64,000 nt of DNA from Larus michahellis (taxonomy: Eukaryota; Chordata; Aves; Charadriiformes; Laridae). Location: positions 5,235,001 through 5,299,000 of the forward strand of contig NC_133911.1 of assembly GCF_964199755.1 (NCBI RefSeq), read 5' to 3'. The stretch's first letter is position 1, and the number at the start of each line of letters is the position of its first letter. This document shows, piece by piece, positions 37,701 to 63,869 of the stretch. The notes beneath the pieces were generated by a model. It made no database searches and was not told where the DNA came from. It was given only the letters and a program-made list of their open reading frames with translations. The position numbers and the translations under genes were made by a program.

Positions 37701-40700
37701 TTTATTTAGGGTATTAAATAACAAAGCCAGTCTTAAGCCAAAATCCACCACCACCAATTGCTTGCAATAGGTGTAAAGAACAGTGGATGGGGGAGATTTG
37801 AAGCATTTTGTCTCTTTTTTTTTTTTTACTGATTTCTTTTGTTACATAGGTGAATGCATGGAGTGCAGAGCTCCTGGCAGAGTTTAGGGAATCTTGTTGT
37901 CAATCAGAGGATAGTTAGCTTTGATTTTATGATCTCATGTTTGCTTTCCTTTGTGCCTCCCTTTTTCTTCTTGTCAGAATGGAGACTACAACAAGCCCAT
38001 CCCTGCTCAGTACATGGAACACCTTAACCATGTTGTGTCAGGTGCTACGACTTTCTGTGATCCTACCAAACCGCAACAGTGGGTGAGCAGCCAAATTCTG
38101 CTTTGCAAGAAATGCAACAATCATCAAACCATGAAGATCAAACAGCTGGCTTCGTTCTCGCCAAGGGAGGAGGTAAGCATTCATTAAGGACTGGCATCAC
38201 AGGAGAATGTTTGTCCAAGGCATTCCCATGCATGTATTTGCTATTCCCACACTGTCGATTTCCTGCTCCAATTAATTTGCTCTATAATAATTTATTTTGT
38301 CTGGCTTTGCAAATGGTACCATGCTGCAGCCTAGTATGCAGGAGAGAGAGGAATTTTTCAGTATGCTGTGGAATGATGCTGCAGTAGTCTTCAGAAGCAC
38401 TGTGTGGCACTCCAGTGCAGAGGAGGTTACTGATTAGTGTTGCAAATTTACCTGATCCTACTCCAAAGTTAGAATGTAATGACCTGTTCTAGATGGACAC
38501 TGGAAGTTGAAACTTGAGCCCAAAACCAAACATGCACATTGCTGAAATCGACTTACAACTCCAGTACTTACCATTGACCCAGCTGAGGTTACAGGACCTG
38601 GTAGGCACAACAGACCACTAGTCACCTTGAAGCCTTAATATGTTTTGTTTTTCCTGAGGCCTTGGTTGTGCTGCTCTGTTTTTACTAGTGGAGTGGGAGA
38701 GGAATCCTGTGCAGCTACATAATCCTCCCTGGTGCCTAGGAGGGCAAAGGGATTTTATAGTTACAGCAGCAGGATTTCCTGCTGAGCAACTTCTTGGCCT
38801 TCCCATTAATTAATGTGCATGGGGAATAGGATAGTGGGGTTTCTCCTTCACAGTTTATGGCTCCCCAAAGTTCTATGCAGAGAATTTAGTGCTGTACTCC
38901 TTAGCTTTCAACCATGGTCAAGCCTTGGGGTCATAAAACTGCCCTGTAGTGGGATGCATTTATCTTCTGAGTTGCCTAATCCGGTCTGCTTTGTGTAATT
39001 TAACGAGCTTAATCAGGATGACTCCCAGGGAACAGATTTAAATTTGATTGTGCTTAATGAGAACATCTTTGGCTGATTCCCTTTTCTCAGCTTTATTTCC
39101 AGTTCCCTGCCTCTTGCAGACCTATCCACTTGCTCAAGTAATGCCAGCCGTTGGCCCCTTTTTATGCATTCAGTGAACTGCAGTGTCTGTGCCAGTTAAG
39201 AAACATGTGACTGTGTTATCCAGCATGGTTAGAAATGTATGTCAGTGACAGCAGTGGCCTCTCTCAGCATTGCTGGCCTGTCCAGTAAGGGGTGACTCTG
39301 CTGCAGCAAGCCCTCAGACAGCTACAATGCATCTTTCTACTTCCCTCTCCCAAAGAAGCTGCATGCTTTCAGCTGTATTCTTTTGGTACAAGAATCGTGA
39401 TAGAGACTGGGAGTGGAGATGGAAGAGCCTCAGGATCCTCTGCGATCAGTGGTATCTCCACTGTAGTGATGTAGAAAAATGTGCCTTTGGGCCTACCTGC
39501 TGTCTGTTTTTACAAGTACTGTTAATGATTTATGGAGTTTATCTCACCAGGACCTTCAGACAGTGACAGCGTTTGAGGCTAAGGCTAAGTTTCGGAAGTT
39601 TGTCTCTTTCTGTGGCACTGTGGTGTGAATGGACAACAGGTCTTTTGTGTCCCCTCATTTGAGGAGGGGAAGAGCAATTCTAGTTTTTTTGTCTCATCTT
39701 CCTTGTTGAGTTCATAAGGTCTCAACAAAGACAGCAAAATTGGGCCACAGAAATTCAACATCCTGAAATTGGGCCACAGAAGCCTTCTCCAAGGGCTGTT
39801 TTGTCACTTCTGGGACATGGCGGCTGGGTCAGCTGTATCCAAAGTTGGTTGTACTGCTGGCCTCCAGCTTGGTCACTGTTGAGGCCTGGTTTCAGGGGGC
39901 TTTTTCTATGGAGACTGGAAGCAGGCCTTGCTCACATGTCAGTAACAAGCACAATAACTGGTGAGGGACCTGCACTTCTCACCTACCTTTCCTCTCCTCT
40001 CACCAGGGCAAATATGATGAGGAGATTGAGGTGTATAAGCACCACCTGGAGCAGACCTACAAGCTGTGCCGTCCATGCCAGGCTGCTGTGGAGTACTACA
40101 TCAAACATCAGAATCGGCAGCTCCGGGCGCTGCTGCTCAGCCACCATTTCAAACGCCGTGAGACAGACAAGACCTATACTCAGGTACATGGTGGGAGAAC
40201 ATGAGGGAATTTAGGGGGAAGTGCAGAGAATAAGGTACCTCTGCACCTGGGTTTACTGCTGGGAAGGGTAGGCAGCGGCCTTGGGGTGCTCTAACTGGGA
40301 GCTTGGGTGCATGGTAGAAGTTTAGAAGAGCATATGGTAGTTGCCACAGATGCTTCTGATGTTAGTTTGAGCTTTTCCTCTTGCTAGTGTCATTCAGTGC
40401 AATTGCCAGAAGGTAAGTCTAATAGGAACAGAGTGAAAGAAAAATAGTGGGAAAGGCAGAAAAGGGGAGATAGGGTTTTGAGTATAGTGAGGAAAATCAT
40501 TTATAAGTACAGTGCAGGGAACTACAGAATACAGGCGGAGGGGAGGGGGGGAAAGAATGATGGGAAGTGATTTATGACCTTCTCTTTGTCTCACTGCCCT
40601 GCCTGATCTTGGCTTCTGCTCACAGCTCTGCTGTTGCACTTTGCTAGTCTACAACATCCCATGTGGTGTCAGCCTTAAAAGGACATGAGCAGTAAACCAC

Positions 40701-43700
40701 ACAGTCTGGAAGTATTTCATAAAGCACCGTTTCAAAACCTTACTACAGTTCATTCAGCTTCTGACAAGGTGTTTCTCCCTTCCTCTGCAGAATTTATGTT
40801 CATCCTCCTCTTCTGCTTCCATAACCACACCAGCTCAGGTGATATTTCTGCGGTTCTTGGCCTTCATCAGCTGCGCATTCCTGGTTCTGATGGCCTTGTA
40901 TGGGTCAGGCGACCCCTTCTCACTCAGTGCAGCAGTTCCTGCTCCCGTCTCCTCTGGTCCAGCGTCCATTCAGAACAGGACTGGCATGAGTTCACGTGCA
41001 GACTTGGAAAATGACACTTCTGTGACCACGGCAGGCTGGCGGGAGCTGCTCCGCCTGCTCCCAGAACAGATGGTGGAGAACCTGAGTGCTGCATGGGCTT
41101 ACGGGAAGAATCACCAGATGGCAGTTGCTGTCCTTGGGCTGTTCACCTGCCTGTTGGCCATGTTCTTAGCTGGGCGGATCAGGTGGGTGTGCTCTTTTCT
41201 TCTGTTTTGCTTAAAGGAAAACTGCATAATGTTGGAGGTCTTTTGCCCTGTCTTAACTCAGTGGGCTGGGGGTAAAAGTTGCCAGAATGGCAAACGTAGT
41301 ACTGGGTGACACAGTTTTCCCTGTTGTTCTTTGGGTTGCCTGCCGGCTGGATGGAGACAGCAGAGCTTGCTTTGGGTCTGTGCCTTGGTTCATTCAATTT
41401 AAGTTTGAATTACTGTGAATGAAAAGCTCCCCATGCAGCTCTGTAATCTGGTAGAGAATGGAACTTATTGATTCAGGTTCTTACACAGCAGTGGCAAGGA
41501 CTGCAGATGATATAACCGTAGTAAGATATAGTACATAGCCTGCTCACTCTCTGTACCCTTCCCACCTTTTCCCCACCTTCCCTCTCCTTTCTCAGGACCA
41601 AGGGGCTTTGCTGGTGTTAAAACTCTTACCTTGTGTCTTGTTGGGTTTCTTTTTGGCATTACAGGCTCCGGAGAATTGATGCGTTTGCTTCAGTCTTGTG
41701 GTTCGTAGTGATGAGTCTGCATTTAGCTGAGAGGTACCTGAAGACGGAAACACCCACCTGGCTAGACACAGCTAAATTTGGCACCACATCCTTGTGCTGC
41801 TTGGTGGGCTTCACCGCAGCAGTGGCCACGCGGAAATCAACGGGCCATCGGAGATACCGGCCCCGAAGGTCAGAGCCAGAGCAGTGACGCTGGGGGAAGG
41901 AGGAAAAAAAAGCCTTGTGAACTCTTTGCGACTGGTGCTTCTCTCTCCTCTTTTTATTTTCCTTTCCTCTTTTTTTTTTTTTTTTTTTTAATTAGATAAG
42001 CAGTGAAGATCTCTTCTTCCTTTATATATATTTTTTTTCTCCTTTCCCTCCCCCCCCCCATCCTTGCTTCCCACTGTGCTAGCTGCTTGGAGCATTTCCA
42101 CTGCTGGTGCTAGCAAAGGAAGCTACTCCTGCTGCCTCCATTCTCCTTTCCTCCTGAATCCTACGTCAGCAGTGCAAATATCCAACCTCCCCAAAGCCAA
42201 TTCTTCCAGCAGCTGCTTCACAAACTGCTCCATAAATGCAGCCGCCTCCTCCCCATTCTGCTCCTCCAGCCAAAGAGGTTCTGGCTTCTCCTGTCCATCC
42301 TTAGCCAGTCACAGAGGAATCCTCTGCCTTGATCCTCCATGGGGCCCAGGCCACCTTCAGTTTTCTAATGGTGCTGGTCATTTTAATTTCGAACTGATGG
42401 GAACTTGCCTCTGGATTCCAGGTCCTCGTACCGTGTGCTGTAGAAACACTGCATGGTGTACAGGCATGGGAGGAGAGGACACATGTAGTCCATAACCTGG
42501 TTCTTCTCGCCTTCCACTGTGCATCATCAGTTAACTGCATGTTCTCTTGCTCTGCCAGTCTCCTATGACTCCTATTTTAAATGGAGAGGTGTCCTTAAGT
42601 GCTTTTGACTGGAACTTCAATAATTTATTTAAAAGGGTGCTTTAGAAGGTTATGTAGCTCAGGTTGTCTTAATTTGAATATATGAAGGTATTCAGCTGTT
42701 TTAGGCTAAATTTTCAAATCTACTGGTGGCTGTTGCTTTCTATGCTGGTTTTCTTCGGTTTTACCCACCCACCTCCCCCAAGGAGCATCTGTATAAAACC
42801 ACAACTGGATAAAAATGCATATGTTCCTCCAATCCTGTAGCCTTAGAAAGAGAAGAAATATGGGATGAACAACCATATGCTGTGGTATGTGGACGGCTTT
42901 CATTGTACATCACTACTTAATTCAGTCACCGTTTTCCTTATCGTTGAGAACACAGATTGGAAGGATGTGCTATAGGAAGGGGTGGGAGCCTCTACTGTAG
43001 GACCGCATGGTATTTTTCTTTTTACTTGGAGAGGTTCTTTTTTAAAGTCTGGCACTAATGCTGCTGAAGGAAGTGGTCTGGAAGTGGTGACTTTGAATTG
43101 GGTGCCTGGCAGTCCTCCACTGAAAGTTGGGATGACTGGATGTTACTGTGTGGGGAGGAAGGAGCTTTCAGCTGCTTGGGTTTTTGTAGGATTAACTTGC
43201 TCTGGGGCCTCTTAGGATAAGCAATCTGATTATCCTGCACTGTTTTTTGCAAGGCACTCCACTGAATTTCTCATCCAGATTTGGGTCTTTCAAGAGGAAA
43301 TAGCATTGTTACAGAAGATCTGCTATTTTATTGTGTTCAGAGTAGCGCAATGGAACTTGCCACACTAATAGTCTGATAGAAGTTAATTGAGTGTCTTGAT
43401 CTTCCTGTGTGTAAACTCTAAAATAATCAGAATGGAGGTCTGACTATAAATTATTTGCAGTTCCTGCTGAAAGATTCAGACACTACTGGCTACTGCAGAT
43501 GCTGGTGAAATTATAGAAGCTTTTGGAAGCTTTTTTAAAGGAGACAAAAGATATTTTATAGCTTTTCATAGTTACTGCTATTCAAACTGGTATTAGTTGC
43601 GAAAGCAGCAAGGTAGCACTAACAAAGGCTCTGTTATTGTTATATATTAAGCCAAGCTGAGTGTGTCGTGGGAAGGTGCAGCTCCTGGCTGAAGGACCGT

Positions 43701-46700
43701 GTGCCTGTAACCTAACCACCGGCATGAGAAGGGGACACACAAACCTGCTTCCCATATGTGCTCTCCTGTGGAACTTTTTTCCAGTGCCTTCAGATAACTG
43801 CAATATCCACCTCCAAGCAAACAGAACGCCTTTCTCCATTCTGGTGCTTGTGAACGATGCTACTCTGAGGGCTGGTTACTTACTTGTCCGCCAAAGGAGT
43901 CCAGCATCTGCAAATCTGGTTCTACTCTTCCGCGTTCCCATCGTTTATCAATTCTGACCCAAAAGGTTTGTCTTCCAGCTCACAGTCCCAGGTTGTTTCT
44001 TGTTCCAGTCTCAGACTTTGGAAATGTTAAATAATAACCATTATGTCCCATTTTCCACTGGAACACTTTATTGCATTTAGAGGACTGTTTCAAAGTAAAT
44101 GCTACAAGAAGCCATGTGACTTCATCAAAAGGGGAAAAAAAGCCAGGAGAAGTGTGCAGTGTCCTCAGTGCTGGGTTAGATTTTCACAATCACTGTGGCA
44201 CCTCTTTCCTACTCTCTGTTACAAGATTTGGTAGGAAACGTTCCTTAAAAATCCAGTCTTTTTTCTGTACCTGTCAGCCTGTTGGAGCAGGGAGCAATGC
44301 TGAGAGAGACAGCAGTAAGCTGGTGAAAGGTCAGAAGTGGCAGGGAAAATAACAAACCAGGGGGGAACCCAATCCAGTGCCAGTTCTGCCATTCTCTAAA
44401 CAAGCTGCGCAGAAGACCCAGGAAACCTGGAGCTGTTATGTCCATTAAGTGAAATAAGACATCTAGCTGCCTTTTTTTTTTTTTTTTTCTTCCTGCCTCT
44501 GTTCTTCCTGCTTCAGTACTTTCAAGTTTTTCCCATAAAGTTAAATGTAGGAGACTGATGTTTCTATTTAGCTCTGATTGTCTTCTGCACTTACCTATAG
44601 AAGTTGGATTGAAAGTTCCTGCTATCTTCTAGCCCATGACCTTGGGACCACCTGGTGTGGCAGAGGAGAGCAGTTCCTCTTGCTGCTCTGCTGTCAAGTA
44701 TGCCCAAGTGTGGGGATGGTCGTGGTAATGTCACACCTGATTTCTGATGGCAGTATCCTTCCTTTTTTTAATAAGAATAAAATTAATCTGTACAAATATT
44801 CTTGCCCAGTAGCAAGGAAACTCTTAAGTGGCAGCCTCTAAAGGTACGTGGCAGCCTCTTCAAATGTCTTTCTTTCAGGAGCTGAAAGTCAAGGCTGTAT
44901 GAAGTTTCACTGTGTCCTATTTCATGCGGTCTCCTATCTCTTCTGAGCAGCTGTTTCCCCCCCGCGTCTTTTTAGCAATTTAAACATGCCCTGGCTTTGA
45001 GCCCCCTGGGGTCTGGTGCCTTTTATGATGTTTTGCTGTTAAGTGTTATGTTGTTTTCCTGTGCCTGACCTTCTCTTTTATTCACTTTTTATTTTTTCCT
45101 GTGCAGTGCTGGGATGGGTTGGGGAGGATGCATGCTAGATAGCAGGAACAGGCAGTTGGTAAAACTGTGGGAAGAAGCGGGGTTTGCACTGTGAAGCCTG
45201 AATAATACTGTTAAGAAACATTTTAGCCCTGTTTGAACAGCAAGCGCAAATCTATACTGAAAGAGTTTAAAATCTTTTCATCTGGGAGATACGTTAACTG
45301 CAACTGACATGCAAGCAAGAAATCCATTTGTCGTAACTTTATGCAGATTAATACAAATGAAGTATATTTACAAGTTGCACTAATGTTATCTGTCAGAACA
45401 TCAGAAAGCTACTTAATTTTATGGCCGAGCTGTACAATTGAAGCCCTGGTCTCTGTGGTGCTTTGTCCACAACTTATAATTGAAGAACTTTTGGACTCAT
45501 AATTGGAAAAATTTCAAAGGCAAAACCAAATAACAAAACAGATAGTGAAGTGTGGTTCAGTTTTAATGCCAAAGAAGCTTTTGTCTTTGCTCAGGTGTCA
45601 GCTTATTTTCCCACTTCTTGGTTGCCTCAGCATGTCTGTGCTGCTGCTTCTAAAAACAAAAAACCTCAGAGCCTCAAAAACAAACTTGCATCAATTCGAT
45701 TTTTTGTCTTCTAGAAACTCTGATGCTGACAGTCTCCTCTGTTTCTGCTTTTCTCACATGCTTTGTCTCGCATGCTTTTGCTGCTGGTAGAGATTGATTG
45801 ATCTTTGGCAGGAGAGGGATAAAAGGAGGAGAAAGGTGGTGGGTTTTTTTCAGAGGCGTTTTGATTTATAAACTGCTAGCATTTCATTTGTACCAATTGT
45901 GTCTCCTTAGACAATTAGGCCTGAAAAGATCAGTTATCAGTATTTTATTGTTGATTGTTTCTGGAAAAAAAATAGTTGAGCCACCACTGCCTTTACTGAG
46001 ACTGTTCCTGCAATACCTAATTTCAATGCCAAATAGATTATTCGAAACGCAATGCCACGCTGTAGGTTCTCTAAGGAAGGTGCTTTGCCAACTTTGCATT
46101 TTTTACTTGAGGTTCGGTTAGGAAATAGCTCAGCAATTAGATGTGCCATCTAATTCTGCCTAGTGGCATCCCCCACAGTGACTTCAGCAGAAGGAAACGT
46201 GTGCTTCCAGCTCAGGTATTTTGGTGCTAGTCCAACATCCAAGCACAGTGCTACCATCTTCATGAAGCTGAGGTGCTATTCTGTATGACACGTGTGTCTA
46301 CGTTTCCTTCTGCTGAGGGGGATAATAGCTAACAAAGGGCTGATAACTAACACGGCTGACACAAAAATCATCCAGAACCACTTGATCAGTGCTTTGAGCT
46401 TCTTGTTTTCACTTAGCTGGGCTCTTATCTCAGGCCACAGAGGAACACATGGTAACCTGTGGTCACCAGATGCAGCTTTGTTGCTTGAGGATTCTTCTAG
46501 ACATGCAGGCCAGAGCATGCAAACATCTTAACTCAACAGTATTAGAGGATTTTAGCCCAAAACCCTCTAATGTCAGGTGCTACTTTTTTACGCTGGCCCT
46601 GTGTTGGTGTCTGGACCAGAGGATGGTACTACAGAGTGGAGCTGAGGTGGTGAGGGATTTGTGTGTCACTTGAAATCAAACATGCTCTGACCCAAAGTGG

Positions 46701-49700
46701 CTGACTCTGGCTCTCACAGCGGCCATGCCTGATCTGCCAACTCAAAAGCATCTTGTACCCTGCTCAGCAGAGCTGGATGTGTAAAGGGGCCGATGTGGGT
46801 TCTTTAAGTGCCTTTCCCTGGCTGAGATTTTTGACAACACTGTGTTGCTCTGCTTCAGTGGAACTGACACAGCTGCAGCTTGGGACAGCAGTGCCTGGAT
46901 GTCTGCCAGGCCAGTGCTTTTCTCCTTCATTTGCCACCGGTGAGTGTGGCTGGGAATAAGAGGATGTTTGGGCCGCACTCTTAAATTTCTGAGCAACTCT
47001 GCAGACTGTAGCGGGGTGAGGGAGAACCCAGAGCTAGCAACCAAGTAAGTGTCTCTGCTGCTACTTCTGGTCTTCCTGAAGCCCTGACTGACATCAGTGC
47101 ATGCTAACTGAAGCCTTTGTGGCCCTTTACAACTCTAAATACGCTATATTTGTATCCCATTCTTTCCATTAACTTCTCTTTTTGTACGTCTGTGCTTTGC
47201 ATGCCCTAGTGAACTGAGCTTGGGTGTGTCAAAGGGTGAGGACACAAGGGGAATATTAAAATGGTGTAGTGGTGTTTTATTTTGGCTTTATGAATATTTT
47301 TCAAGTACGCTGAAATTATGTGAAGCTAATAATCATGCTTAGATACTATAGAATGTATGTCTTGATGTATTGTGGACAAACTATTTATACTCTTCTAAAA
47401 ATTAATATAATTAATAGCCAGATGATTGCTCCAGACTGACTCCACTCATGAAAGCAGGGAGCTGTGGTATATGGCTTTGCTTCGGTTTTTAAAGAGCTGT
47501 TGTTGAAATTGTGTGCTGTCACATATAACCTGCCGGTTCATTCCAGGTGTGCTGTCACCTGCAAGTACACTTGGCGCCTCTTTGAGCCATAGCACACGCT
47601 CTCATGTGAAAGGGGCAGTACTCAGTCCTGAAGCGTACCTTGAGTCATGCCCTGGAAAGCCTCCTTTGGGACCAAAGCTGTCCAGTACGCAGGCAGGGAA
47701 GAGGTCCTCTGAACATTTTTGTCATGCCAGTGAGTCTGGATTTTTGCAGACTTGGTTGTGTGTATATACACTCCACACACACACCTTTGTGCCACCAGCT
47801 AGGGGGGAAGGCAAAGTTGATGCCAAACATCTGTCGCACTCTACAAGGTATTAGTGCAGGACCTGTCAGTTGGAGCATTTTCAGCTATAATTCAACCCTC
47901 CTTTTTCATCCAAGGGCATCCAGGGCAACACGTAGGAGAAAAGGATTCTTAGTCTTGGCAGCTAAAGTTTCTACTCTCAAGTCACATGTCAAAATCTTAA
48001 TGTGTCTGAGACCTGTGCCCTTTTTTAGCATTTTTCTCCTCTCTCCCTGTGCCAGTTTTTTATTTGCTGTATTGCTCTTTACTCCTGATTCTGTCAGTGT
48101 GACCGGAGGCACAGGTTGTGGCGTTGACTGATGTGATGCAGCAGACCAGACAAGTGACTGCATGTCAGCTCCCAGACACTTGCTTATCTCAGAGCCGGCA
48201 GTAAGGCAAGAGTGAGCTACTCCTGCAGTCTCGGCAGCAGCCCCCATGCTGCCTGGAGAAAATGGTGCAGTTACACACGGGTAACTCAGAGCTAAATTAC
48301 CATGGGACCTTAAGTCCAGGGGATACATTTTACCCCGTGACTGACCCATGGTTCCCTGGCTGCCTCCTGGCAGGTGAACCCAGGCACATGCGACTGTGAC
48401 TGCACGTTACCTTCTTACTTCATGTACTGAATTACCTGATAGTGGGAGTGGGTCCATCTGCAGCCCTGGAGCCTGACCTGACCCACGGTCTCCCATGTCT
48501 GTATCCCAGGGGTGATGCAGCATCTCTGGTTAAAATGTGAATTAGAAAGGCACGCAGGTAGGGTGTTGTCTCTGGGTAAGAGGGAGGTGTTGGGACAGAG
48601 GAGGGGAGGCTCTGCTGGCAGGAGGTGTTTCTTCAGGACAGTGTACGGTCCCATACCATGTGATATTCTTTAACCTTCTATTTATTTATTTTTAAAATAT
48701 CTGTGTAGCACAGTTGTGCCCAACTGTCTAGTAATGCTGTGATCATTGTAAACACTAATTAAGATACACACTTTTTGATGTTCACAATACCAAGTTCTGA
48801 AATAAACGGCTTCCGGGCCCTGACTATTTCCACAAACTGTCTGACTCCAGAGCCTTTTTTTTTTTTTTCTTTTTTTTTTTTCCCCCCTTCTCCTTTCTTT
48901 TTTGGTTACTTTTTCACTGTTACCAGACACGCTATTATCACATGCACAAATGGCTTGGAGCAATGTGGTAGTCTGAGAGCAAAGACACAGCTACAGTGCT
49001 CCATTCCAAGGTGTTATGTGGCTGCTTCCTGCTTTACGATCCTCTTGATCTCTTCATCTTTTTTCCATCTGCTTCCAAAAGAAGTTTTAGTTCATCCGAC
49101 CATTCTCAGGCATGAAGCATATTCCTATGACAGCACCCCTCCTTTTTAGCAGCATCTAGCCCTTTTGACATGAGTGGCAAACACTAAAGAGAAGAGTGCA
49201 TAGAAAAGGAACAGGGTTTTGCGTATGTTGCAGGAATTTACTTTGTTCAGAGCAGATCAATATTTAAGCCATTCTTTGGTCAGCACTCAATCCTAAAGCA
49301 TTAATATGCTATGCTTAAAATTCTTCAGTTCTTCTTTGCTAACCAGAAAAATTCCTTTTCTGGATGGTGCAAGATAAGTGATTCCTCAGCTGCCCGGAGG
49401 CTCTGACTGCACTGACTTGGTGAGGTTGAGAAGAAGTGGGGCTGTGGAGCAGCAGAGCCCATGGAAGGCTGATCCAAAAAAGTTACAATCCCAGGAAAAA
49501 TATTGTGGTTATGAGTGATAAGTGATTGTAATATCTTCCAGCCCGTTAAGGGAAAAACTGCCAAAAGCCGATAAACCAGATAAGCTGTTTTCCAGTGCAG
49601 CAAGGAGCTGCGTAAAGTTGGATCCCTTAGCCCAAAGATACAAAAGGTGCAAAGTTAGGGAAAAAGAGTTACGTTCACAGGCGGTGATTTGGCCCTTCAC

Positions 49701-52700
49701 AGGCATGGCACAGTGGGTGGTAGGTATCGCTCTTTCTGATATGATTCATACCATAGTCCTGAGCTGCACTTTTAATTTCCTTTCCCATTCGTTTTCTCTT
49801 ACAAAGCTGAGATGGACATGTACACCTGCTATTTACATCTCTGTGTGTGGTGGGGCAAATGCGTATCTGTATGTGCACTAAAGGACTCTGCACGTTTGCG
49901 AAGCATGACACCCTTCCCAGGTCCTCTGGAACCTGAAGAGGTTGGGCAGTTTCTGCTGCAAGACTGACGAGTTCCTTGCCACTGTTAAAGGCATGTCCGG
50001 CTTGCAAGCACCAGGAAGCTGGTTGGCTCAGATGTTGTTCGGCCTGATTAAGCTGGTCGGGATTGTTGATGTCTGCCTCGTACTAGCAGATAAGTAGTTT
50101 TATAAGATATTTTAAATTGTAATCTTAACTCTAGACTGCTGCTTCTGGACATGCTAGCACTGCATAATATTGCTGCATCACCTCTTTAATCTCCAAGAGA
50201 GAATCACACATGCATAAGTGACCTCACAGTGCAAGATTGAGATACATATATTCCTTCACACTCTGATGTACTGCTGGCTTTCCTCTGACAAAGGAAAAGC
50301 CATGTTGCTGCTCTCATCTGTCTCTGTTTTCATCAGAAGTGATATTAAATCTCCAAATGTTAACAGCTTGATTATATGGTGCAAAGTCTGATATCTCCAT
50401 TTTAAAATATATACGCTTCATACTTCATTAGTACTTTGTCATGACTTACTTGGCAAGAGTATTACCTCTTTCTAACTCAACAAAAATCTTACAGGAGATC
50501 TTTTGAGAGATCTTGTTGATATTCTACACTTTCTTCCACGTATTTTATTCAGTTGTTAAAAGTAATACAAACTCCCTATACGTCCAACATTGCAGCCTTC
50601 TTAGAATGCTCATTTTGATGGTATGAGGACACGAGTGAGACTCCAAAGCTGACTCCTCATTTCTGATGCAATGAGGTCAACTAAACTGTACACATAGACT
50701 AAGGTCAGTAGGTGATTGCAAGGAGGAATAGAAAGAAGGTAAAAATAGGAGTAAATTTTTGACAGATTGTTCAGCTTAGATTGATTTTTAAATTTTAAAC
50801 TGCTGCAAAGACAGGTGATAAAATGGGGGTATCGGAAATTAATTGCATAATTTATTTGCATATGGTAATTGAGTGTGAAACACTGTGGCAGTGTTAGCTG
50901 CAAAAACTGTTTAGAATTCAAAGTTCTCTCATACAGTTATTTTACCAGTGGATTAGAAGTCAGCTTATGTCTGTAGTACTTAAAAATCAAGCTAACTGGT
51001 ACAGGTGCCCTTAGTATGTTTTGTCTGTTACCTCTCATCATGTGTTCTCAAGTTGCAAACTCTTGTTTTCAGCTCCCCTCTTTCACTTGGAAAGAACCCA
51101 CTGAAACCAACTCACAGACCTAGAAACACAATCGCTGTTATTGTTGCCCCTTTACATTTTTTCCAGGCACTATAACAGAGATTGTTTTTTATGCAGAAGA
51201 AGCAAGACATTTCCTGGAGCGTATGCCACAGGAGCACAGTTCCCTCTGAATAGCCATGCTGGTACGCATTTGTGGCTAATTATGATATGCAGGGAAAGGA
51301 AAATATAATGGTTTACACCTCAATTTAGGATTGGAAAACCCAGGTTTGTGTCTCTGTTCTGTCATAGGATTTTTATGTGACCCTCAATAAATGATTCAGC
51401 TTCTTTTTCCTTCTCTTTCCCATGTTTAAAATGAGGGTAGTGAGTCTTCTTTACCTCACAGATATAATAAAGGCAAATGTACTAAAGAGGTTTCAGTGTT
51501 AGTTTTAAAACAGAGCTCTTGTGCCTAAATCTTTATCTAGGTGCCCATAAAAATCCTCTTCTCTATACTGGCATCAGAGGTAAGGTGTTGATTCTGGTTT
51601 CTAAAGACAAAAAGACTAGTAGATTACTTGCTTCCTACAGTCATGACATTTCTAAGCATGTTGTTTGCATGTGCACATAACAAACACAGGATGTACTCTG
51701 TGGTTGCTCGTATGTGTATCTGGGCTTTATAAAGCATTCTGGTGGTCTCTGGGAAATTTTCTCATCCAGGGAGAGAACCAAGGTGTTATGCCTATTTGTA
51801 CCCGAGTTCTTAAACTGTCCCACCATTTTTTTCACCCTGTATTGTGGGACAGGTTGGTCTCACAATAATTTAGGTAAGGTTGAGCAGTTCTTCCTTCCCC
51901 AGTTTTAAAGGTGTAGGAACATTCCCGTAAACGCTTAAGCATTCTTGAGCTTGCACTCCTGCACTGAAAAAGTAGTATAAACCTGATAACAAAGCAAGTG
52001 TTCATGCAAGAAGTACAACTGAGAGAGGGTGTTACTGGAATGTACTTATTGCTAAATGTCTGTCGTGGTGTCATTTGCAGGTACCTTTCTGGGGATTCGA
52101 TTACGCTCTTTCCCAGCGGCACTGGGACTGGCTTCCCTTCCTCTGCTACGTCTCTCTTTGTCCCAACACCACCCAGTATTCTCCAGCTGACAAACCAACA
52201 GCTTTTCAGATCCCCACGCAGAACTTCTTCTTCCTCTCTTCCTGGCCGTCTCAACAGGGCGCTCTCGCTGGGGACCATCCCCTCCTTGGCCAGAGCAGGT
52301 AAGTGTGCGTGAAACTTTCTAGTCCAATGGAAATGACAATGGAGCAGTACGATGCTTCAGAAGAAAATGGGCTGTGAGGTATCCGCTTTATAGTCCTGTT
52401 TAGGGATTGCTGCTCCTGTGGCACAGAGGAGTATCCGGCATCGATAATTTGGGGTTTTGGCATTAAGATATTACAGAACATACCATTGCCATCTTGGTGA
52501 AACAAAAAGTCTCACTGAGTGCTTTCCTAGTGTGGGTTTACTGAAATCTAGAGGCTTCTCCAGGCGTTTGTGGCAGCATGGCACAAGCTACAAGGCTATG
52601 TGTGGAAGAGAGACAGAAAGAGCAGTTAGACACGGGAATGGAGAAGAGCAGCTTTTGGAAGTGATTTGGAGCATTAGGGTAACCGATCTGGCAAGAGCTC

Positions 52701-55700
52701 CCTTCCTGCTACCTGCTTTGTGTAGTTTGCTTTACTTTCCTTGCTACACCTGAGCTGAAGAGCAGGCTCTTCTCTCAGTCTGGATCTGATATGCATTGGC
52801 ACAACTATTGAAACTGCTTTAGAGACCCCGTTTCCTCTTTTGTTTTTTTAAGGGCTCTGTGCGATCTGCGCAAGGTTTATAGGCCTAAGGAAAGTCTCTC
52901 CCAGCAACTCAGCAAGCCCTCAGTTTTGCTGGGCTTGAAACTAACCGATGGGAAATAGCATTTAAACGCTGTTCTCCATCAGAGGCCAAAATGTGGCAGT
53001 TTCTAGGCTAACACTGCAGCAGAGAGAGCAGTCTTGTGGGGATTTTTTAGTTTAAGCTCTGAGGTTTCATTTGTATCACTTTTTCCTGACTTCAGTACTT
53101 TTCATTGATTTTTTTTTTTTCTTTTTTTTTTCTGCCTCGTTATTACGGCTGCCATGCCTGACAGCTAGGTGGGAGTGCATCTCACTCTGTGGTCTACGCT
53201 TAAGGCTCTTTTCATGAGGAAAGCATACAACCATATCTTTACCTGTTTCCTTTTAAAGTAGAGGCAAGCCAGGCTGTGATATGGTCACAGGGTTGTTTTT
53301 TGGAGCCTTCTGGGCAGATCTGTTCTGCTGCAGCTGGGAAAAGTAGGTATTCTGATGCTGGCATATAGCCTACCCAGGAAAACAGGGACATTTTTCATGC
53401 CTGCATTTATACCCGTCCCCTGATGATGCAGTTACATTTCTGAAGGATAGACCACCAGTAGCTGAGCCAGCTGGGTTCAAACTGTTTCTTTTTTGCTTTT
53501 TAGATTCTGGCTACTTGTTCAGTGGAAGTCGACCAGCCTCGCAGTCATCTCAGACCAAGGAATCTCCTACATCAGGTAATGCACGTGGCCTTCCAGAGCA
53601 GCTGTCTTTGCAGGATTTGCAGTGAGTGGGTTGAAACACATGATCCAAGTTTAATTCGTTCCTCCCTGCTCACATCGCAGTGAAAATGGCAGTTTCACTG
53701 TTAGAAATGCTTCAGAGACTGTTCCAACTAGGAGTGGGATTTCATTAAAATAAGGTGCTGCATGTGTTGGATGTCCTTGTCCATGGGAGAGCTCACAGTG
53801 AAACCAGTGCAACAAAGCAAGGAACCCTTCCCTGCTCTAGAGCTGAGTTGAGGTTGCTTTGATAGGAGACTTTAAACTGTTCTAGGGCAGCTCGTTTGTT
53901 TCACTTGCCTTCCCCAGCCCAAGGAACTGCTAATTTATCCACCCTGTCTGCTCTGCCCTTTTGCTCCTGTGTGACCTGTCTGTTGCCCTCCTGACCCCAA
54001 ACGGATCCTTTGGCTGTTGGTGCTGTTTAAGTGTTTGCTCCCAGAATACAGTCGCAGCCTGGGCTAATGCCATTGTGCAAACCTCCTTGCATCCTGATAA
54101 CTCTTTGCCAGCGGCCTTTAAAGGACATGCCGGAATGGTTGATTTACCTGCAAAGCATCATGTGTAATGCAGGCTTTCCTGAATGGACACAACTGAGCAG
54201 AGAGAAAGCTCACCTGGCTCCTGATAAACCCATCTCTAGTCTAAATCATTCTTGAGTGTACCAAAATGCAAGTGGAGTTTCTCCGTGTTTAGCAGTGTGG
54301 GAACTGGAATCAATTAAGAGTTTAGTACAAGGCATGTTGGACATTTGCAACTCCCCTTCCCCTTTCTGGTAGAATTGTTAAAGAAAACTGTGCCTATTGT
54401 GTTGGGATTATAATCTCATTATTTTCTCTTCGGGTGTGTTTCCATTTCAGAGCACTTCTCCCTGCTGTCAGGCAGCTGTGCTCCCTCCCGCATCCCCTCT
54501 CCAGCACCATCCGTGGCTGGCTCTGTGACTTCCAGCTCAGGTTCCTTGCGGTACCGCCGGCCACTCATCAGCCCTGCCCGCCTGAACTTGAAAGGACAGA
54601 AGCTGCTGCTTTTCCCGTCTCAGAACGAGGGTCTGCTCACCCCAACTAGCTCAGAGGAGCACACCCACTCAGATAGCAACATCTTTGCCACCGAGTTGTC
54701 CCCCTTCCCAAAGAAGAACCTCAGCGAGCGGGGAATGCATGGTATGCTGGCAGCCTGCTGCACTCCTGGAAGTGCATTTGTAGGAAGGAGTTGGCTTGCA
54801 AGCAAAGCCGCGTATCGTCTAGGCCACATAGTAGATGGGAAACCTTCAGGAAAAACCCAGGTGGTGATGCCTGTTAGGCTACCAAAGCTCCCTTAAGAAT
54901 CCACTGGCCTGGAGAGCTTCTCGTCTGCCAAAACAGATGTCGTTGTCTCACTTAGTGGTGCCCCAGGGATACTACTGCCACTGCCTTCACCCTTGTTTGG
55001 ATAACTCCTTTACCACGGATGTGGTGATGATGATATGGACAGTGTATGAGACAAACATGCAGGCAAATTTCACTGCTTTCACAGCAGTGAAATTTGCCTT
55101 TTGTTTCCAGCTCCTGTCCTCAATCCTTTAATGATTTTACCAGGCAAACATTCATTACTTATGCCTAGCTTTAGTCTGGTAACTTCTGCTACTTTTGGCT
55201 TCCACTGGTGCTTTCTGAATTTTCCTATCTTTTTCTCCTTCCAGATATGAGATCTGCTATGGAAGGAGGGAGTATTTGCAGTGAGAATTCCATCAGAAAG
55301 GAGGATCGCTCATCACACTCATCTACCTGTGTGGTAGACACAACTACCAAAGGGGAAGATTTGGCAGGCTGGAGAGGTAGGTGCAAGTCATGTGAGTGCT
55401 TCATGTGTGCGTGAACGTTTCGGTGAGGGTCACTGAGATCTTTCCTGTGCTGTAGTGTAGTGACCTGATCTTGAGATCAAATAAATAAGTAGTAGCAAAA
55501 TGAATCTTCCGCCTGCTATTCTAGGACCTTAATAAGGCTGTTCCTGTTCTTTGGACTGTCTGGAGAATACTGATTGAGTGCTAAACTGAGACAGAAGGAA
55601 AGGGGTGGGGGTGTGGGTGTTGGGAAGAGCGATGAGATGAAAACAGAACCAAAGAGAGCAGTGGAATCTTTTCTGACAGGAAAAGTGCTTCAGCAGCTTT

Positions 55701-55933
55701 TGCTTATGGTGAAAACACTGGGCAAAGAGCGAGGAAGAGCCTAACGTATGTTCACTGGTATTTATCTCATCAATTCTTTAATATCTCTTTGTACTATTCC
55801 CTTTTTTTATCTTTGTGTTGTCTTCTTCTGTTAAGGTCATTTTGGTAACTCCGCTCTCCGAGGTCTGCTCGCTGTGAGTCTGACTCTCAATGCTATCTTC
55901 ACATCAGCCTATGTCTACCGGAGCCTGCGTTGA
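31604..55933 (+). CDS. TMEM201: TMEM201 (SAMP1/NET5), inner nuclear membrane protein (whole coding span, 11 exons)
   Basis: The spliced long form is 667 aa, against 666 in human. It is an inner nuclear membrane protein, the orthologue of fission yeast Ima1, linked to centrosome, LINC-complex and spindle functions. Exons are 31604-31707, 37218-37338, 37978-38172, 40007-40183, 40791-41182, 41665-41868, 52081-52298, 53504-53575, 54451-54741, 55245-55376 and 55836-55933, all GT-AG and in phase. After a hydrophobic N-terminal segment, the Ima1-type domain has CxxC motifs at 45-48, 61-64, 64-67, 118-121 and 161-164. Further membrane segments lie near 216-236, 308-328, 336-351 and 373-385. A long Ser/Pro/Arg tail with SPRRTS and SLSLGTIPSL-type blocks leads to a last membrane helix at about 643-661. 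Two N-glycosylation sequons (261, 273) lie between membrane segments. Confidence 0.97.
31708..37217 (+). other. TMEM201: TMEM201 intron 1
   Basis: 5.5 kb, CpG-rich at its start, in which nothing else is recognised. Confidence 0.85.
37218..37338 (+). CDS. TMEM201: TMEM201 coding exon 2
   Basis: It encodes residues 35-75 and holds most of the zinc-ribbon-like cysteines: CWFC, CWDC and CPNC. The acceptor is CCTAACAG and the donor is GAG|GTACTG. Confidence 0.96.
37339..37977 (+). other. TMEM201: TMEM201 intron 2
   Basis: 0.6 kb with a T run near 37818 and a short CCA repeat near 37746. Confidence 0.85.
37978..38172 (+). CDS. TMEM201: TMEM201 coding exon 3
   Basis: It encodes residues 76-140 (NGDYNKPIPAQYMEHLNHV...) with CKKC at 118-121. 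The acceptor is CTTGTCAG and the donor is GAG|GTAAGC. Confidence 0.96.
38173..40006 (+). other. TMEM201: TMEM201 intron 3
   Basis: 1.8 kb holding the 16-base direct repeat. No exon is recognised. Confidence 0.85.
39737..39781 (+). repeat. Short direct repeat AAATTGGGCCACAGAA x2
   Basis: Two identical 16-base copies at 39737-39752 and 39766-39781 are separated by 13 bases in TMEM201 intron 3. Confidence 0.85.
40007..40183 (+). CDS. TMEM201: TMEM201 coding exon 4
   Basis: It encodes residues 141-199, including CRPC (161-164) and VEYYIKHQNRQLRALLLSHH. The acceptor is TCACCAG and the donor is CAG|GTACAT. Confidence 0.96.
40184..40790 (+). other. TMEM201: TMEM201 intron 4
   Basis: 0.6 kb in which nothing is recognised. 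Confidence 0.85.
40791..41182 (+). CDS. TMEM201: TMEM201 coding exon 5
   Basis: It encodes residues 200-330. A serine-rich linker (SSSSS at 203-207) is followed by a membrane helix (VIFLRFLAFISCAFLVLMAL), a lumenal-type loop with sequons NRT and NDT, and a second helix ending in AGRIR. The acceptor is CTCTGCAG and the donor is AG|GTGGGT. Confidence 0.95.
41183..41664 (+). other. TMEM201: TMEM201 intron 5
   Basis: 0.5 kb in which nothing is recognised. Confidence 0.85.
41665..41868 (+). CDS. TMEM201: TMEM201 coding exon 6 (long form)
   Basis: It encodes residues 330-398 (LRRIDAFASVLWFVVMSL... to RRYRPR), covering two membrane segments. In the long form the donor AG|GTCAGA at 41869 is used and joins exon 7 at 52081. 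Confidence 0.95.
41665..41887 (+). CDS. TMEM201: TMEM201 short-isoform terminal exon (donor read-through)
   Basis: If the exon 6 donor is not used, the frame continues R-S-E-P-E-Q and stops with TGA at 41885-41887, giving a 403-aa protein. Human has a known short isoform of 392 aa (SAMP1a) that ends at the same exon. The sequence permits this form; whether it is expressed here is inferred. It would lack the whole Ser/Pro tail and the last membrane helix. Confidence 0.7.
41936..42062 (+). repeat. Polypyrimidine region just after the short TMEM201 stop
   Basis: A largely C/T + strand includes T runs near 41971-41989 and a C10 run near 42050. It begins about 50 bases after the read-through stop codon and so would be in the 3'UTR of the short form or in intron 6 of the long form. 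Confidence 0.8.
44776..44781 (+). terminator. TMEM201: Candidate poly(A) signal for the short TMEM201 form (AATAAA)
   Basis: This is the first canonical AATAAA I found after the read-through stop at 41887, about 2.9 kb downstream in intron 6. Use by the short transcript is inferred. Confidence 0.35.
46168..46323. repeat. Large imperfect inverted repeat
   Basis: The left arm TCAGCAGAAGGAAACGT (46184-46200) is an exact reverse complement of 46300-46316. Outside it, ATCCCCC (46168-46174) pairs with GGGGGAT (46317-46323) after a 9-base bulge. The inner 99 bases are only weakly complementary. It could be a decayed MITE-like element or a local inversion-duplication, and no target-site duplication is clear. 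Confidence 0.8.
48855..48900 (+). repeat. Polypyrimidine tract
   Basis: Long T runs broken by a single C are followed by a C run and TTCTCC units. It lies in TMEM201 intron 6. Confidence 0.8.
52081..52298 (+). CDS. TMEM201: TMEM201 coding exon 7
   Basis: It encodes residues 398-471: the start of the nucleoplasmic tail, with NQQLFRSPRRTSSSSLPGRL and RALSLGTIPSL, both strongly like human. The acceptor is ATTTGCAG and the donor is G|GTAAGT. Confidence 0.95.
52299..53503 (+). other. TMEM201: TMEM201 intron 7
   Basis: 1.2 kb with T runs near 53109-53131. Nothing else is recognised. Confidence 0.85.
53504..53575 (+). CDS. TMEM201: TMEM201 coding exon 8
   Basis: It encodes residues 471-495 (DSGYLFSGSRPASQSS...). 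The beginning matches human closely and the end diverges. The acceptor is CTTTTTAG and the donor is G|GTAATG. Confidence 0.94.
53576..54450 (+). other. TMEM201: TMEM201 intron 8
   Basis: 0.9 kb in which nothing is recognised. Confidence 0.85.
54451..54741 (+). CDS. TMEM201: TMEM201 coding exon 9
   Basis: It encodes residues 495-592: a Ser/Pro-rich tail with the conserved block RRPLISPARLNLKGQKLLLF. The acceptor is CCATTTCAG and the donor is G|GTATGC. Confidence 0.95.
54742..55244 (+). other. TMEM201: TMEM201 intron 9
   Basis: 0.5 kb containing the 60-nt hairpin near its 3' part. Confidence 0.85.
55048..55107. repeat. Near-perfect hairpin
   Basis: Arms 55061-55077 and 55083-55099 are perfect 17-base reverse complements with a 5-base loop (TTCAC). 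After a 5-base left bulge the stem extends about 8 more pairs (55048-55055 with 55100-55107, one G-U). The total is about 60 nt in TMEM201 intron 9. It may be a small RNA precursor, a cruciform-forming site or the relic of an inverted duplication. Confidence 0.85.
55245..55376 (+). CDS. TMEM201: TMEM201 coding exon 10
   Basis: It encodes residues 592-636, with GSICSENSIRKEDRSSHSST and CVVDTTTKG, close to the human tail. The acceptor is CTTCCAG and the donor is G|GTAGGT. Confidence 0.95.
55377..55835 (+). other. TMEM201: TMEM201 intron 10
   Basis: 0.46 kb with a small G-rich stretch near 55602. Nothing else is recognised. Confidence 0.85.
55836..55933 (+). CDS. TMEM201: TMEM201 coding exon 11 and stop
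   Basis: It encodes residues 636-667, with the C-terminal membrane helix ALRGLLAVSLTLNAIFTSAY and the end YRSLR, then TGA at 55931-55933. The acceptor is TGTTAAG. Confidence 0.95.
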
Positions 55934-60107: not shown

Positions 60108-62039
60108 AATGGATAAGTTTTCACCTCAGTGTGATTCTATTTCTTGGGGAGCTGAATATTTTTGGGGAAAGGGAGATGGTATTTGTGCCTCTGTGTGTGT
60201 CTAATCAAATTAACTTTGATCTCCTCACTCTTTTAAAGCTGACAAGAACTAAGAGAAAGCACAAAGCTTTGTGAGCTTCCCCAAAGCCAGGAGAAGCTCT
60301 TGACTGTGATTTGGAAATGGAAATGGATGGGGAAGTACATTGTTATGTTTTGAAGGCTTTCCATCAGTTAAAAGGGAAGTAATCTCCCGCCATTAACTGA
60401 TGTTCTGAACTTCTCCCTAGATGGAGCTGTGCCCCATAGGGACCTTGCTGTCTTGAACTCCTGTAGGATAGGGACCACCAGTTACATACCTGTTTCCAGA
60501 GAACCCTGACCTCAGCTGATGACTGTAGGGTGGCCTGGTAACACCAGGACTATTTCATTTTGTCTGGATTTTCAGTACTTGGGAAGGCGGGGAGGAGGGG
60601 TGTGAAGGAGGTACTGAATGCTGGTACCTTGGTTGTGATCCAGTCATCTTCCAAACGTGCGTGTGTCAGCAAGAAAGCCAAGAGGATTATTTAGATGGAC
60701 AAGACAGGGCACATGTAAGGGATGTTCAGTGAAGCCCCAGAATTTGTCCCGATATGTGCATAGTCACAGAGTGTCAGAGTGGTCCAGTTACATGCATGCC
60801 TTGCGATTGTGTTCATTTGGCACTTAAGGGATTTTTTTCCTCTATGAGATGAGGGCTGAGAGTCTTTCCAAGATTTTGCTTTTATGTGTTATTTTATGGT
60901 CTTTAATTTATGTTTTTATTTTGTAATGTAAATTAAGAGACGGGTGGCATAAGGTTTTAGACATAGGTTTTCTGAGCGCAGGCTTCAACAGGTTTTCCTC
61001 CATTCATACATTTATGACCCATGTTTTACTTTGTTAAAATGTGCTGCTAATTTGTTTTAAGACCTGTCAATGTATTCTGTCTTCTCGTTAAAAACCTGGA
61101 GAAGTTCTGTATATTGCTGTGCCAGAAGGGATTCACTTCTCAGACATTCTTCCTTTCTCCCTCTCTTCTTTCAGTGGTAGAGACCTGTTTGGTTCTGCAA
61201 TCTGTTTTTATTTTCAACAATGGTGTTCTGTTTACTTTCTTTTCCATTACACAGAGCTAGCAGAAAAAACTCATCATACAGGTGAGTCTTCCTGTGCTCC
61301 CTCAAAGAGCTTCCTTCTTGTGCCATTGGCAGATTTGTTATAACCAGCAGGGATGTTTCATTCTTAATAATTTAAATATTTCCATCTAGCCCAGTGAAGG
61401 TTTGCTGTTAAAAGACCTGTACGGTATTTTTAAAATACAAGACATGACAGCATTGTTAGACCCACCACTATTCAGCTACTGTTGATTGTTTCTGTAAACT
61501 GAGAACAACAGCCTGATAGTCATCAATGTTTTCCTTCTGTTTCTTAGCTCTGTACAACTTTTGGAAAAAAGGAACTGATTCCTTCCAGACTAGTTGAGTC
61601 ATGATTTTTTTTTTAATTAAGGGATGTTGGTGGGGTTTTTTTTTGTTTTTTAAAAAATAATAGTGATCAAAGAAACACTTTCCAAAGGAGAACATGTGTT
61701 TTAATTAAATTACTGGCATCATCCCATTGATAATTCTGTATTTTGAAGCCTTTGGTGAATTGTGGTGCTTGCTTGAATGTGACACTGATAAAGTCGAGGC
61801 TGCTGCAGCAGAGAGCTCTGCTCCTCTGCCGTCCCTGCTCAGTACCTGCAGGCATCCGCTGAGCTGCCGCTTCCCCTGCAGCCACGGTGCTGGGATGCCA
61901 GCCGGGTGCTGGGGAACCAGCCGAGACAGGGATGATGCTGCGCGGCGCGTAAGTGCCGGATGTGTTTGCATCTGTAAATGTGCAGCTGAGCACCTAATCT
62001 CACTGAGACGGTAAGATTCAATGTATTCGACTAGTTTTA

Positions 62040-62312
62040 CTGCAGATAGCCTACCGTGCAGCGCGGAACTTTCGCCGGGGGTGTCCCCGCCGCGGCCCTT
62101 CAGCCCTCGCCCCCAGCTCCCTGCGGTCCAAGGGCCCTCAACAGCCACCCCCCCCGCCCCCGGCGCCGCCTTTGACCCCCGGTATTTGGGTTTGCCAACC
62201 CAAAGCGACGTCCTGACCCACCCGCGACCCCAAACAGCCCCAAAACGGGGGGGGGGGGAGGCGGGGAGAGGGTTTAGAGGGGCAGCGGAGGGGCCGGGAG
62301 CGCGGCGGGGCC
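62040..62312 (+). promoter_or_regulatory. CpG-rich 5' region of the forkhead gene
   Basis: GC-rich, CpG-rich sequence leads into the forkhead ATG. It contains a run of 12 G at 62247-62258 followed by GGCGGGG, a likely G-quadruplex former. The transcription start cannot be placed from sequence. Confidence 0.55.
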
Positions 62313-62975
62313 ATGGGGGACGCGGAGCCCGAGGAGCCGCAGGCGGCGGCGGCGGCGAGCAGCCCGGGCGCCACGGGGCCGCTGCAGAAACCGCCGTACT
62401 CCTACGTGGCGCTGATCGCCATGGCCATCCGGGCCAGTCCCGAGCAGCGGCTGCCCCTCAGCGGCATCTACGCCTACATCGCCGGCCACTTCCCCTACTA
62501 CCGCGGCGGCCCCAAGGGCTGGCAGAACAGCGTCCGCCACAACCTCAGCCTCAACCCCTGCTTCCGCCGCCTGCCCCGCCGCCCCGGCCCCGCCGCCCCC
62601 CGCCGCGGCGGCGACTGGGCGCTGGACCCCGCTTTCCAGGACATGTTCCCGGGGGGCGACTATCGCCGACGCCGCCGACCGCGCCGACAGGTTCCCCCCT
62701 CCCCGCCGCTGCCGCCGCCGCCCGCCGCCCCCGCGCCGTGGCCGCTGCCGCTGCCCCCGCCGCCGCTCCCCGGCGCTGCCCCGCACGCTGCCTGGCAGCT
62801 GCCGCTGTCCCGGGGATGCCGCTGCCCCGAGCTGACCGGTTGGGGCCCGCACGCCTTCCTGGGGCCGCCCGCCTGGCCGCTTTCCGGCGGGGCGAGGGTA
62901 GCCGTGTGCCCGGGCGAGCGGGATGCGGGGGCGACCTGCGAGTGGGGGGCGAAGCCGCCCCCGTCCTTTAAATGA
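62313..62975 (+). CDS. Divergent single-exon forkhead (FOX) transcription factor
   Basis: This intact 220-aa frame starts at ATG in a strong context (GGGGCCATGG) inside a CpG island. The forkhead domain spans about residues 26-122. [14 protein letters not shown] (26-39) is helix 1, GIYAYI follows at 51-56, [12 protein letters not shown] (70-81) is the DNA-recognition helix, and an RRRRRPRR basic stretch lies at 118-125. Wing 1 is unusual: the common GKGxYW is replaced by RRGGDW, with about two extra residues. A short acidic and alanine-rich N-terminus precedes the domain, and a Pro/Ala-rich C-terminus ending SFK follows it. It should be a nuclear sequence-specific transcription factor. Compared from memory, FOXL1, FOXS1 and FOXE classes share features with it, but none fits well, so no symbol is given. 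The lack of introns fits those classes. Confidence 0.85.
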
Positions 62976-63487
62976 GGCCCCCCAGGGGAGATGCGCTGCC
63001 TTGGGACGGGCGCTCCCCTGCCTGGCAGAGCTTGAGGCGTTGCGGGTTTCGGGGGGCTTCTGCGTCTCGACTGAATTCCTGAGACTGTGACTTAAAAACG
63101 CTCAGGCTAAAGGAAGATCGGTCTGAAAAGTTCCCGTTGCAATGACTGAGATGTGCCACCTTGTTTCGCTCCTCTGTGCTGTGAGGAAGTGTGAATTGTG
63201 CTCCTGCACCGCTTCATCTGTCTGGATTTGGGGATGAGGGGGTTGCGATTCTGTTGTTTGAACCTTCAGGCTGCAGAACTTGAGCGGGCTCATCAGTATC
63301 TTGTGCCTTCTCCGATCTGAAAGTACGTGAAGAGTCACGTAGATGCTCGTCCTTGCAAAAGTGTAGCTTGGTCCATGCAGGGAAATTACTTTTTCAAGTG
63401 TCCTTAAACTCATTTTGGACCTTTTCTTTCAAGGTTTGTGAAAAAGCAATATATGGGGGGTTTGGGTTTGGGGGAAAAAAAAAACCA

Positions 63488-63863: not shown

Positions 63864-63869
63864 AATAAA
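63864..63869 (+). terminator. Candidate poly(A) signal of the forkhead gene (AATAAA)
   Basis: A canonical AATAAA lies 889 bases after the forkhead stop, followed by GTTGTGG-type sequence. It supports the view that the forkhead frame is part of a real transcript. Confidence 0.55.

What the first reader, a model, noticed from the sequence alone, without database searches (positions are those of the whole stretch)
62313..62975. Intact forkhead gene in a place where mammals have none
A clean single-exon FOX frame with its own CpG island, strong start context and poly(A) signal lies 6.4 kb downstream of TMEM201. From memory, mammals go from TMEM201 directly to PIK3CD. The domain does not fit any one FOX class. 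It could be an old vertebrate FOX gene kept in sauropsids and lost in mammals, or a fast-evolving, GC-drifted copy of a known class that assemblies often miss because of its base composition.
Basis: partly seen in the sequence, partly recalled or inferred. Interest (0 to 1): 0.8.

Follow-up and report, generated by a model that had tools for sequence, protein, structure and literature searches.

The report
Bird copy of germ-cell gene FOXL2L
This is an intact bird version of FOXL2L, an ancient sister of the ovary gene FOXL2 that in fish steers germ cells towards eggs; it is a known gene, but some papers call it lost in land vertebrates and bird records give it many conflicting names.

Summary
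In detail: an intact single-exon forkhead frame of 220 codons lies at 62313-62975 in a CpG island, 6.4 kb downstream of TMEM201. But it does fit a class. It is the bird ortholog of FOXL2L (foxl3 in medaka papers), the vertebrate sister gene of FOXL2. Trees put it in the FOXL2 family (100/100; 100/99 without recalled sequences) and in a shark-to-bird FOXL2L clade (95/96; 100/98). A 2023 paper places foxl2l next to tmem201, with pik3cd among its flanking genes. Bird copies evolved fast and drifted to Gly/Ala/Arg/Pro, which fits 'no class' and the scattered record names (FOXE3-, D4-, L1-, I2-, G1-like). It is not sauropsid-only: fishes and five marsupials have it; the seven named placental hits are FOXL2. 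Most likely it is a transcription factor of premeiotic female germ cells; that role is inferred from fish and chicken papers, not tested here. Three papers call the gene absent or possibly lost in land vertebrates or their ancestor; these data contradict that, though the 2023 paper, and probably a chicken FOXL3-like gene (2019), came first. New member of a known kind.

The parts
62313..62975 (+). FOXL2L coding sequence, single exon, 220 aa
62388..62678 (+). forkhead (winged-helix) domain, residues 26-122
   Evidence: Pfam, PDB FOXL2 match, AlphaFold core pLDDT 91-96 over residues 31-90
62511..62552 (+). recognition helix H3, residues 67-80 ([14 protein letters not shown])
   Evidence: helix 67-80 in the model; 10 of its 14 residues invariant and 2 more (K68, Q71) nearly invariant in 42 aligned proteins; that this is the DNA-recognition helix is established knowledge of forkhead domains
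62679..62972 (+). proline/cysteine-rich tail; the C-terminal YW...R-I/L/M-D motif of FOXL2 and of several turtle and fish FOXL2L proteins is not recognisable
   Evidence: alignment A1; block pLDDT 48-69
61901..63100 (.). CpG island over promoter and gene
63864..63869 (+). AATAAA, candidate poly(A) signal
37198..55933 (+). TMEM201 pieces (stop-to-stop fragments 37198-37344, 39965-40201, 40689-41306; last exon ending 55933); upstream syntenic neighbour
   Evidence: Pfam Ima1_N and DUF2448; last exon by motif; the link of these domains and of the last exon to TMEM201 is recalled
16423..26656 (+). mitochondrial-carrier exons, SLC25A33 by recalled sequence; second upstream neighbour
   Evidence: Pfam Mito_carr in 3 of 3 pieces tested, best E 8.9e-14

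Best explanation
The gene is the avian ortholog of FOXL2L (foxl3 of medaka papers), the ancient vertebrate sister gene of FOXL2, next to TMEM201 as in other vertebrates. It most likely encodes a nuclear transcription factor that binds forkhead sites through its winged-helix domain and acts inside premeiotic female germ cells (oogonia) to promote the egg programme and meiosis. Shown here: an intact frame, a predicted forkhead fold with a conserved recognition helix, orthology by tree and one neighbour, and presence across birds. Inferred from papers on fish and chicken: germ-cell expression and the oogenesis role. The fast, GC-driven change and the missing FOXL2-type C-terminal motif suggest, but do not show, that partners or timing changed in birds.
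For: Top hits are bird proteins, then marsupial, turtle, lizard, tuatara, gar and coelacanth proteins. The best solved structure by sequence is FOXL2 (E 9e-40). Careful trees: FOXL2 family 100/100, vertebrate FOXL2L clade of 37 rows 95/96, birds 100/99; without recalled sequences 100/99, 100/98 and 100/99. Bird rows with FOXE1, FOXD or FOXL1 are rejected (p-AU 0.017, 0.0008, 0.016; the FOXE1, FOXD4 and FOXL1 domains are recalled). In 10 of 10 species that hold two genes, one copy falls in the FOXL2L clade (95/84) and the other outside it with FOXL2. PMC10606028 puts tmem201 next to foxl2l and lists pik3cd among its flanking genes; TMEM201 is in the window. Function: fish mutants; chicken FOXL3-like in female embryonic germ cells and oogonia.
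Against: Sequence alone does not decide between FOXL2L and FOXL2 for the amniote copies (p-AU 0.36 for amniote L2L + vertebrate FOXL2), and FOXE1 with all amniote copies is not rejected (p 0.09). Branches are long and columns few; the place of birds within amniotes shifts (nested with turtles, with lizards), a sign of long-branch pull. PIK3CD lies outside the window, and the own-genome search did not complete. PMC9385715 argues that the sperm-egg decision by FOXL3 is not conserved in chicken. The 2019 chicken paper is not held, and the name FOXL3 also belongs to another gene beside FAM20C, so I could not verify that it cloned this locus. No expression data were tested here.
Confidence: 0.93

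Rival explanations
1. It is a FOXE3, FOXD4, FOXL1, FOXI2 or FOXG1 gene, as bird database records name it.
For: Names given by sources, for example 'forkhead box protein E3-like' for the 98% identical Rissa protein. FOXE1 with all amniote copies is not rejected (p 0.09).
Against: Trees. AU tests reject bird+FOXE1, bird+FOXD and bird+FOXL1; FOXI and FOXG were not AU-tested. The labels contradict each other among orthologs.
Confidence: 0.02
2. It is a recent bird-specific duplicate or retrocopy of FOXL2 rather than the ancient paralog.
For: Single exon; the FOXL2 family is closest; p-AU 0.36 does not reject amniote L2L with vertebrate FOXL2.
Against: Bird copies sit with turtle, lizard and marsupial copies inside the shark-to-bird FOXL2L clade. 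It has PYY/AF where FOXL2 has PFY/AC (mollusc FOXL2 shares PYY/AF, so these states are ancestral and only speak against FOXL2). The TMEM201 neighbour matches gar, turtle, shark and caecilian foxl2l.
Confidence: 0.03
3. It is FOXL2L but decaying: a relic under weak constraint whose germline role has been lost in birds.
For: Long branches (mean 3.0 changes per site from the FOXL2/L2L node in birds, 1.6 in turtles, 0.28 in FOXL2); rewritten tail; PMC9385715 says the fate decision is not conserved in chicken.
Against: The frame and domain are annotated in dozens of bird species from ostrich to songbirds (gene models may favour open frames). The domain is 90% identical among 20 birds against 53% and 61% for the flanks. 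The recognition helix is nearly unchanged.
Confidence: 0.1

Closest known systems
FOXL2L / foxl3 (medaka) / foxl2l (zebrafish)
   Same: Tree clade, forkhead domain, tmem201 neighbour.
   Different: Bird copies are GC-drifted (Gly/Ala/Arg/Pro 0.47 of the domain against 0.27 in the fish group), mostly shorter, and lack a recognisable C-terminal motif.
FOXL2
   Same: Same family; best sequence match among solved structures (66% identity over the domain).
   Different: FOXL2 keeps PFY/AC and a conserved tail; it is a separate gene in the same species.
Chicken FOXL3-like (Ichikawa et al. 2019)
   Same: Probably the chicken ortholog; female germ-cell expression as reported by PMC10048776 and PMC9385715.
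   Different: Original paper not held, so identity with this locus is not verified.
FOXL3 in the strict sense (beside FAM20C; clusters with FOXL1 in PMC10606028)
   Same: Name only.
   Different: Different class and locus; no sequence of it was in my trees.

Membership tests
FOXL2L (foxl3 of fish papers) | Forkhead domain | tested here: met
   Pfam E 6.1e-33; model matches forkhead structures
FOXL2L (foxl3 of fish papers) | Groups with shark, fish, coelacanth and lungfish FOXL2L | tested here: met
   95/96, 100/98, 95/84; but the AU test does not reject amniote copies with vertebrate FOXL2 (p 0.36)
FOXL2L (foxl3 of fish papers) | Locus beside TMEM201 | tested here: met
   with PMC10606028
FOXL2L (foxl3 of fish papers) | PIK3CD nearby on the other side | not testable with these tools
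   beyond the window end; the genome search did not complete
FOXL2L (foxl3 of fish papers) | Expression in premeiotic female germ cells | not tested
   papers only
FOXL2 | PFY and PAC domain residues and conserved tail | tested here: not met
   window has PYY and PAF; tail motif not recognisable
FOXE/FOXD/FOXL1 | Clade with those classes | tested here: not met
   AU p 0.017, 0.0008, 0.016 for the bird rows; with all amniote copies FOXE1 is p 0.09

The most novel reading that the evidence does not exclude
The germ-cell egg/sperm switch FOXL2L, called lost on land by several papers, was kept by birds, turtles, lepidosaurs and marsupials and was rebuilt in birds: its DNA-binding core was kept while base-composition drift and a new tail changed its partners, so that it now works later, in oogonia, rather than as the first fate decision.
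Probability: 0.35. Interest if true: 0.6.

Novelty: new member of a known kind. Interest (0 to 1): 0.4.

Why it matters
[quoted passage not shown] An intact, widely conserved copy in birds, turtles, lepidosaurs and marsupials makes that statement directly testable. It also gives one name to a gene that the bird records shown scatter over eight FOX labels.

Tried and rejected
FOXQ2 was my first guess (the gene paired with blue opsin). It was dropped once hits, structure match and tree pointed to FOXL2L; no FOXQ2 sequence was in the trees, so that exclusion rests on the FOXL2-family support, not on a direct test. A consensus-forkhead search meant to collect all FOX classes returned mostly FOXC. 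Searches for a zebra finch FOXL2L study found one review sentence; the two zebra finch papers opened hold none of the terms searched. The last paper search was too broad to help.

Rows dropped: eight songbird rows (P0046, P0051, P0065, P0066, P0068, P0073, P0076, P0094) were left out of the tree because their domain start did not fit my pattern; one search places all eight with the birds (100/99). The trees used 53 chosen rows of the 204 proteins FOXC rows, and reference domains, P0128 gave no domain and was dropped, and P0126 filled only half of the columns. My first residue census used a faulty pattern; one search replaces it.

Full report
Observation. The frame at 62313-62975 is intact (220 codons, one exon) and encodes a forkhead domain (Pfam E 6.1e-33). 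It sits in a CpG island with third-position GC of 0.92. Its start context is strong, an in-frame stop closes it upstream, and an AATAAA lies 0.9 kb after the stop. Upstream on the same strand are mitochondrial-carrier exons (SLC25A33 by recall) and TMEM201 (Ima1_N and DUF2448). The TMEM201 end at 55933, found by a recalled motif, gives a gap of 6.38 kb.

Which bird. The closest protein is that of the kittiwake Rissa tridactyla (98% identity over the whole length), so the window probably comes from a gull or a close relative. It is not identical to that record.

What gene. The database search gave 783 hits among 7977 scored candidates, of which the best 120 were shown. I count 67 of those 120 as bird orthologs: 59 are placed with the birds in the tree (two of them without a name) and the other eight. 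The rest are turtle, tuatara, lizard, snake, marsupial, fish and unnamed relatives and FOXL2 proteins. The closest solved structure by sequence is FOXL2. In a quick tree of 132 rows, FOXL2 and its relatives form one group of 114 rows (99) and the 60 bird rows another (99). In a careful tree of 66 rows the FOXL2 family has support 100/100. A vertebrate FOXL2L clade of 37 rows, from sharks, ray-finned fishes, coelacanth and lungfish to marsupials and birds, has 95/96, and birds have 100/99. Without the recalled human domains the values are 100/99, 100/98 and 100/99.

Results for and against. Forcing the bird rows together with FOXE1, FOXD or FOXL1 is rejected (p 0.017, 0.0008, 0.016; the FOXE1, FOXD4 and FOXL1 domains are recalled ones). 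Two results go the other way: FOXE1 with all amniote copies is not rejected (p 0.09), and amniote copies with vertebrate FOXL2 are not rejected (p 0.36). Birds nest with turtles but with lizards, so their place within amniotes is not resolved. The FOXL2L-versus-FOXL2 choice therefore rests on four things. First, the free trees. Second, the PYY and PAF residues; mollusc FOXL2 shares them, so they are ancestral and only speak against FOXL2, and a few squamate and marsupial copies deviate. Third, ten species in the listings that hold both genes (Strigops, Caloenas, Sphenodon, Emydura, Carettochelys, Varanus, Protopterus, Pelusios, Pogona, Gekko), whose two copies separate in 10 of 10 cases, support 95/84. 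Fourth, and above all, the locus.

Locus. PMC10606028 (passages and section 15 read; [quoted passage not shown] the window has TMEM201 upstream. It lists pik3cd, clstn1, nmnat1 and rbp7 around foxl2l as counterparts of pik3cb, clstn2, nmnat3 and rbp2 around foxl2, infers origin in the first two genome duplications, and says that foxl2l also occurs in amphibians, reptiles, birds and mammals. PIK3CD would be beyond the end of this window. The own-genome search did not complete.

Why it looked classless. Distances from the FOXL2/FOXL2L node average 3.0 changes per site in 13 birds, 1.6 in 4 turtles, 1.9 in 7 lepidosaurs, 1.4 in 3 marsupials, 0.78 in 10 fish, coelacanth and lungfish copies and 0.28 in 12 FOXL2. 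Gly+Ala+Arg+Pro make up 0.47 of the domain in birds, 0.35 in turtles, 0.36 in lepidosaurs, 0.35 in marsupials, 0.27 in the fish group and 0.28 in FOXL2. The domain is still 90% identical among 20 birds, against 53% and 61% for the flanks before and after it (190 pairs). Ten of the 14 residues of the recognition helix are invariant in 42 aligned proteins. The model of the domain core is confident (pLDDT 91-96 over residues 31-90) and matches FOXC2 (first by E-value), FOXL2-DNA (7vou, TM 0.92 by target, 66% identity) and FOXG1. The fold thus confirms a forkhead, not the class.

Distribution. FOXL2L is not confined to sauropsids: five marsupials are (Notamacropus, Sarcophilus, Gracilinanus, Macrotis, Monodelphis). 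Seven named placental rows all show FOXL2 residues (7 of 7). No row named as crocodilian or frog FOXL2L appeared among the 120 rows shown by each search.

Function. This comes from papers, not from tests of mine. Zebrafish foxl2l mutants are all male, and medaka XX foxl3 mutants make both oocytes and functional sperm (PMC12289312, passages). [quoted passage not shown] FOXL3 is among female-biased gonad genes in a quail study (PMC11299063, passage) and is named in a soft-shell turtle gonad study (PMC9219891, passages). A review mentions FOXL2L in one zebra finch germ-cell population (PMC12650572, passage). Names are treacherous: FOXL3 in the strict sense is another gene, listed beside FAM20C in chicken and present in human, so the quail, turtle and even chicken mentions may or may not be this gene. 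The 2019 chicken paper itself is not held and was seen only as a citation.

Conflict in print. PMC9191896 (passages) says foxl2l is absent from land-dwelling vertebrates. PMC9490121 (passages) says that it was lost in terrestrial vertebrates. [quoted passage not shown] The bird, turtle, lepidosaur, marsupial and lungfish genes here contradict the general claims, as does PMC10606028. The correction is therefore not wholly new; what is added is the orthology of a whole set of variously named bird genes.

Verdict. A real gene and a modest result: the bird FOXL2L, a new member of a known kind.

Noticed in passing
listing, 67 bird rows: Orthologs of this one gene are labelled FOXE3, L2, D4, D3, D5, L1, I2 or G1 (or '-like'), hypothetical or uncharacterized; no name shown (some are cut short in the listing) is FOXL2L or FOXL3.
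   Followed up: yes
listings: No row named as crocodilian FOXL2L was among the rows shown, although turtles and birds have it; possible loss, missing annotation or an unnamed row.
   Followed up: partly
window 62679-62972: The C-terminal YW...R-I/L/M-D motif of FOXL2 and several other FOXL2L proteins is not recognisable in birds; 10 of 20 bird proteins checked end in -FK.
   Followed up: partly
P0125, named FOXD3 of Gavialis: Its forkhead domain groups with FOXE1/FOXE3 rather than FOXD3 in the trees; the record name looks wrong.
   Followed up: no
songbird copies such as P0046, P0068, P0076: Several songbird proteins have long N-terminal runs of repeated GTEPGTER-type units and an altered domain start (PPYSF or PPYSC).
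   Followed up: no
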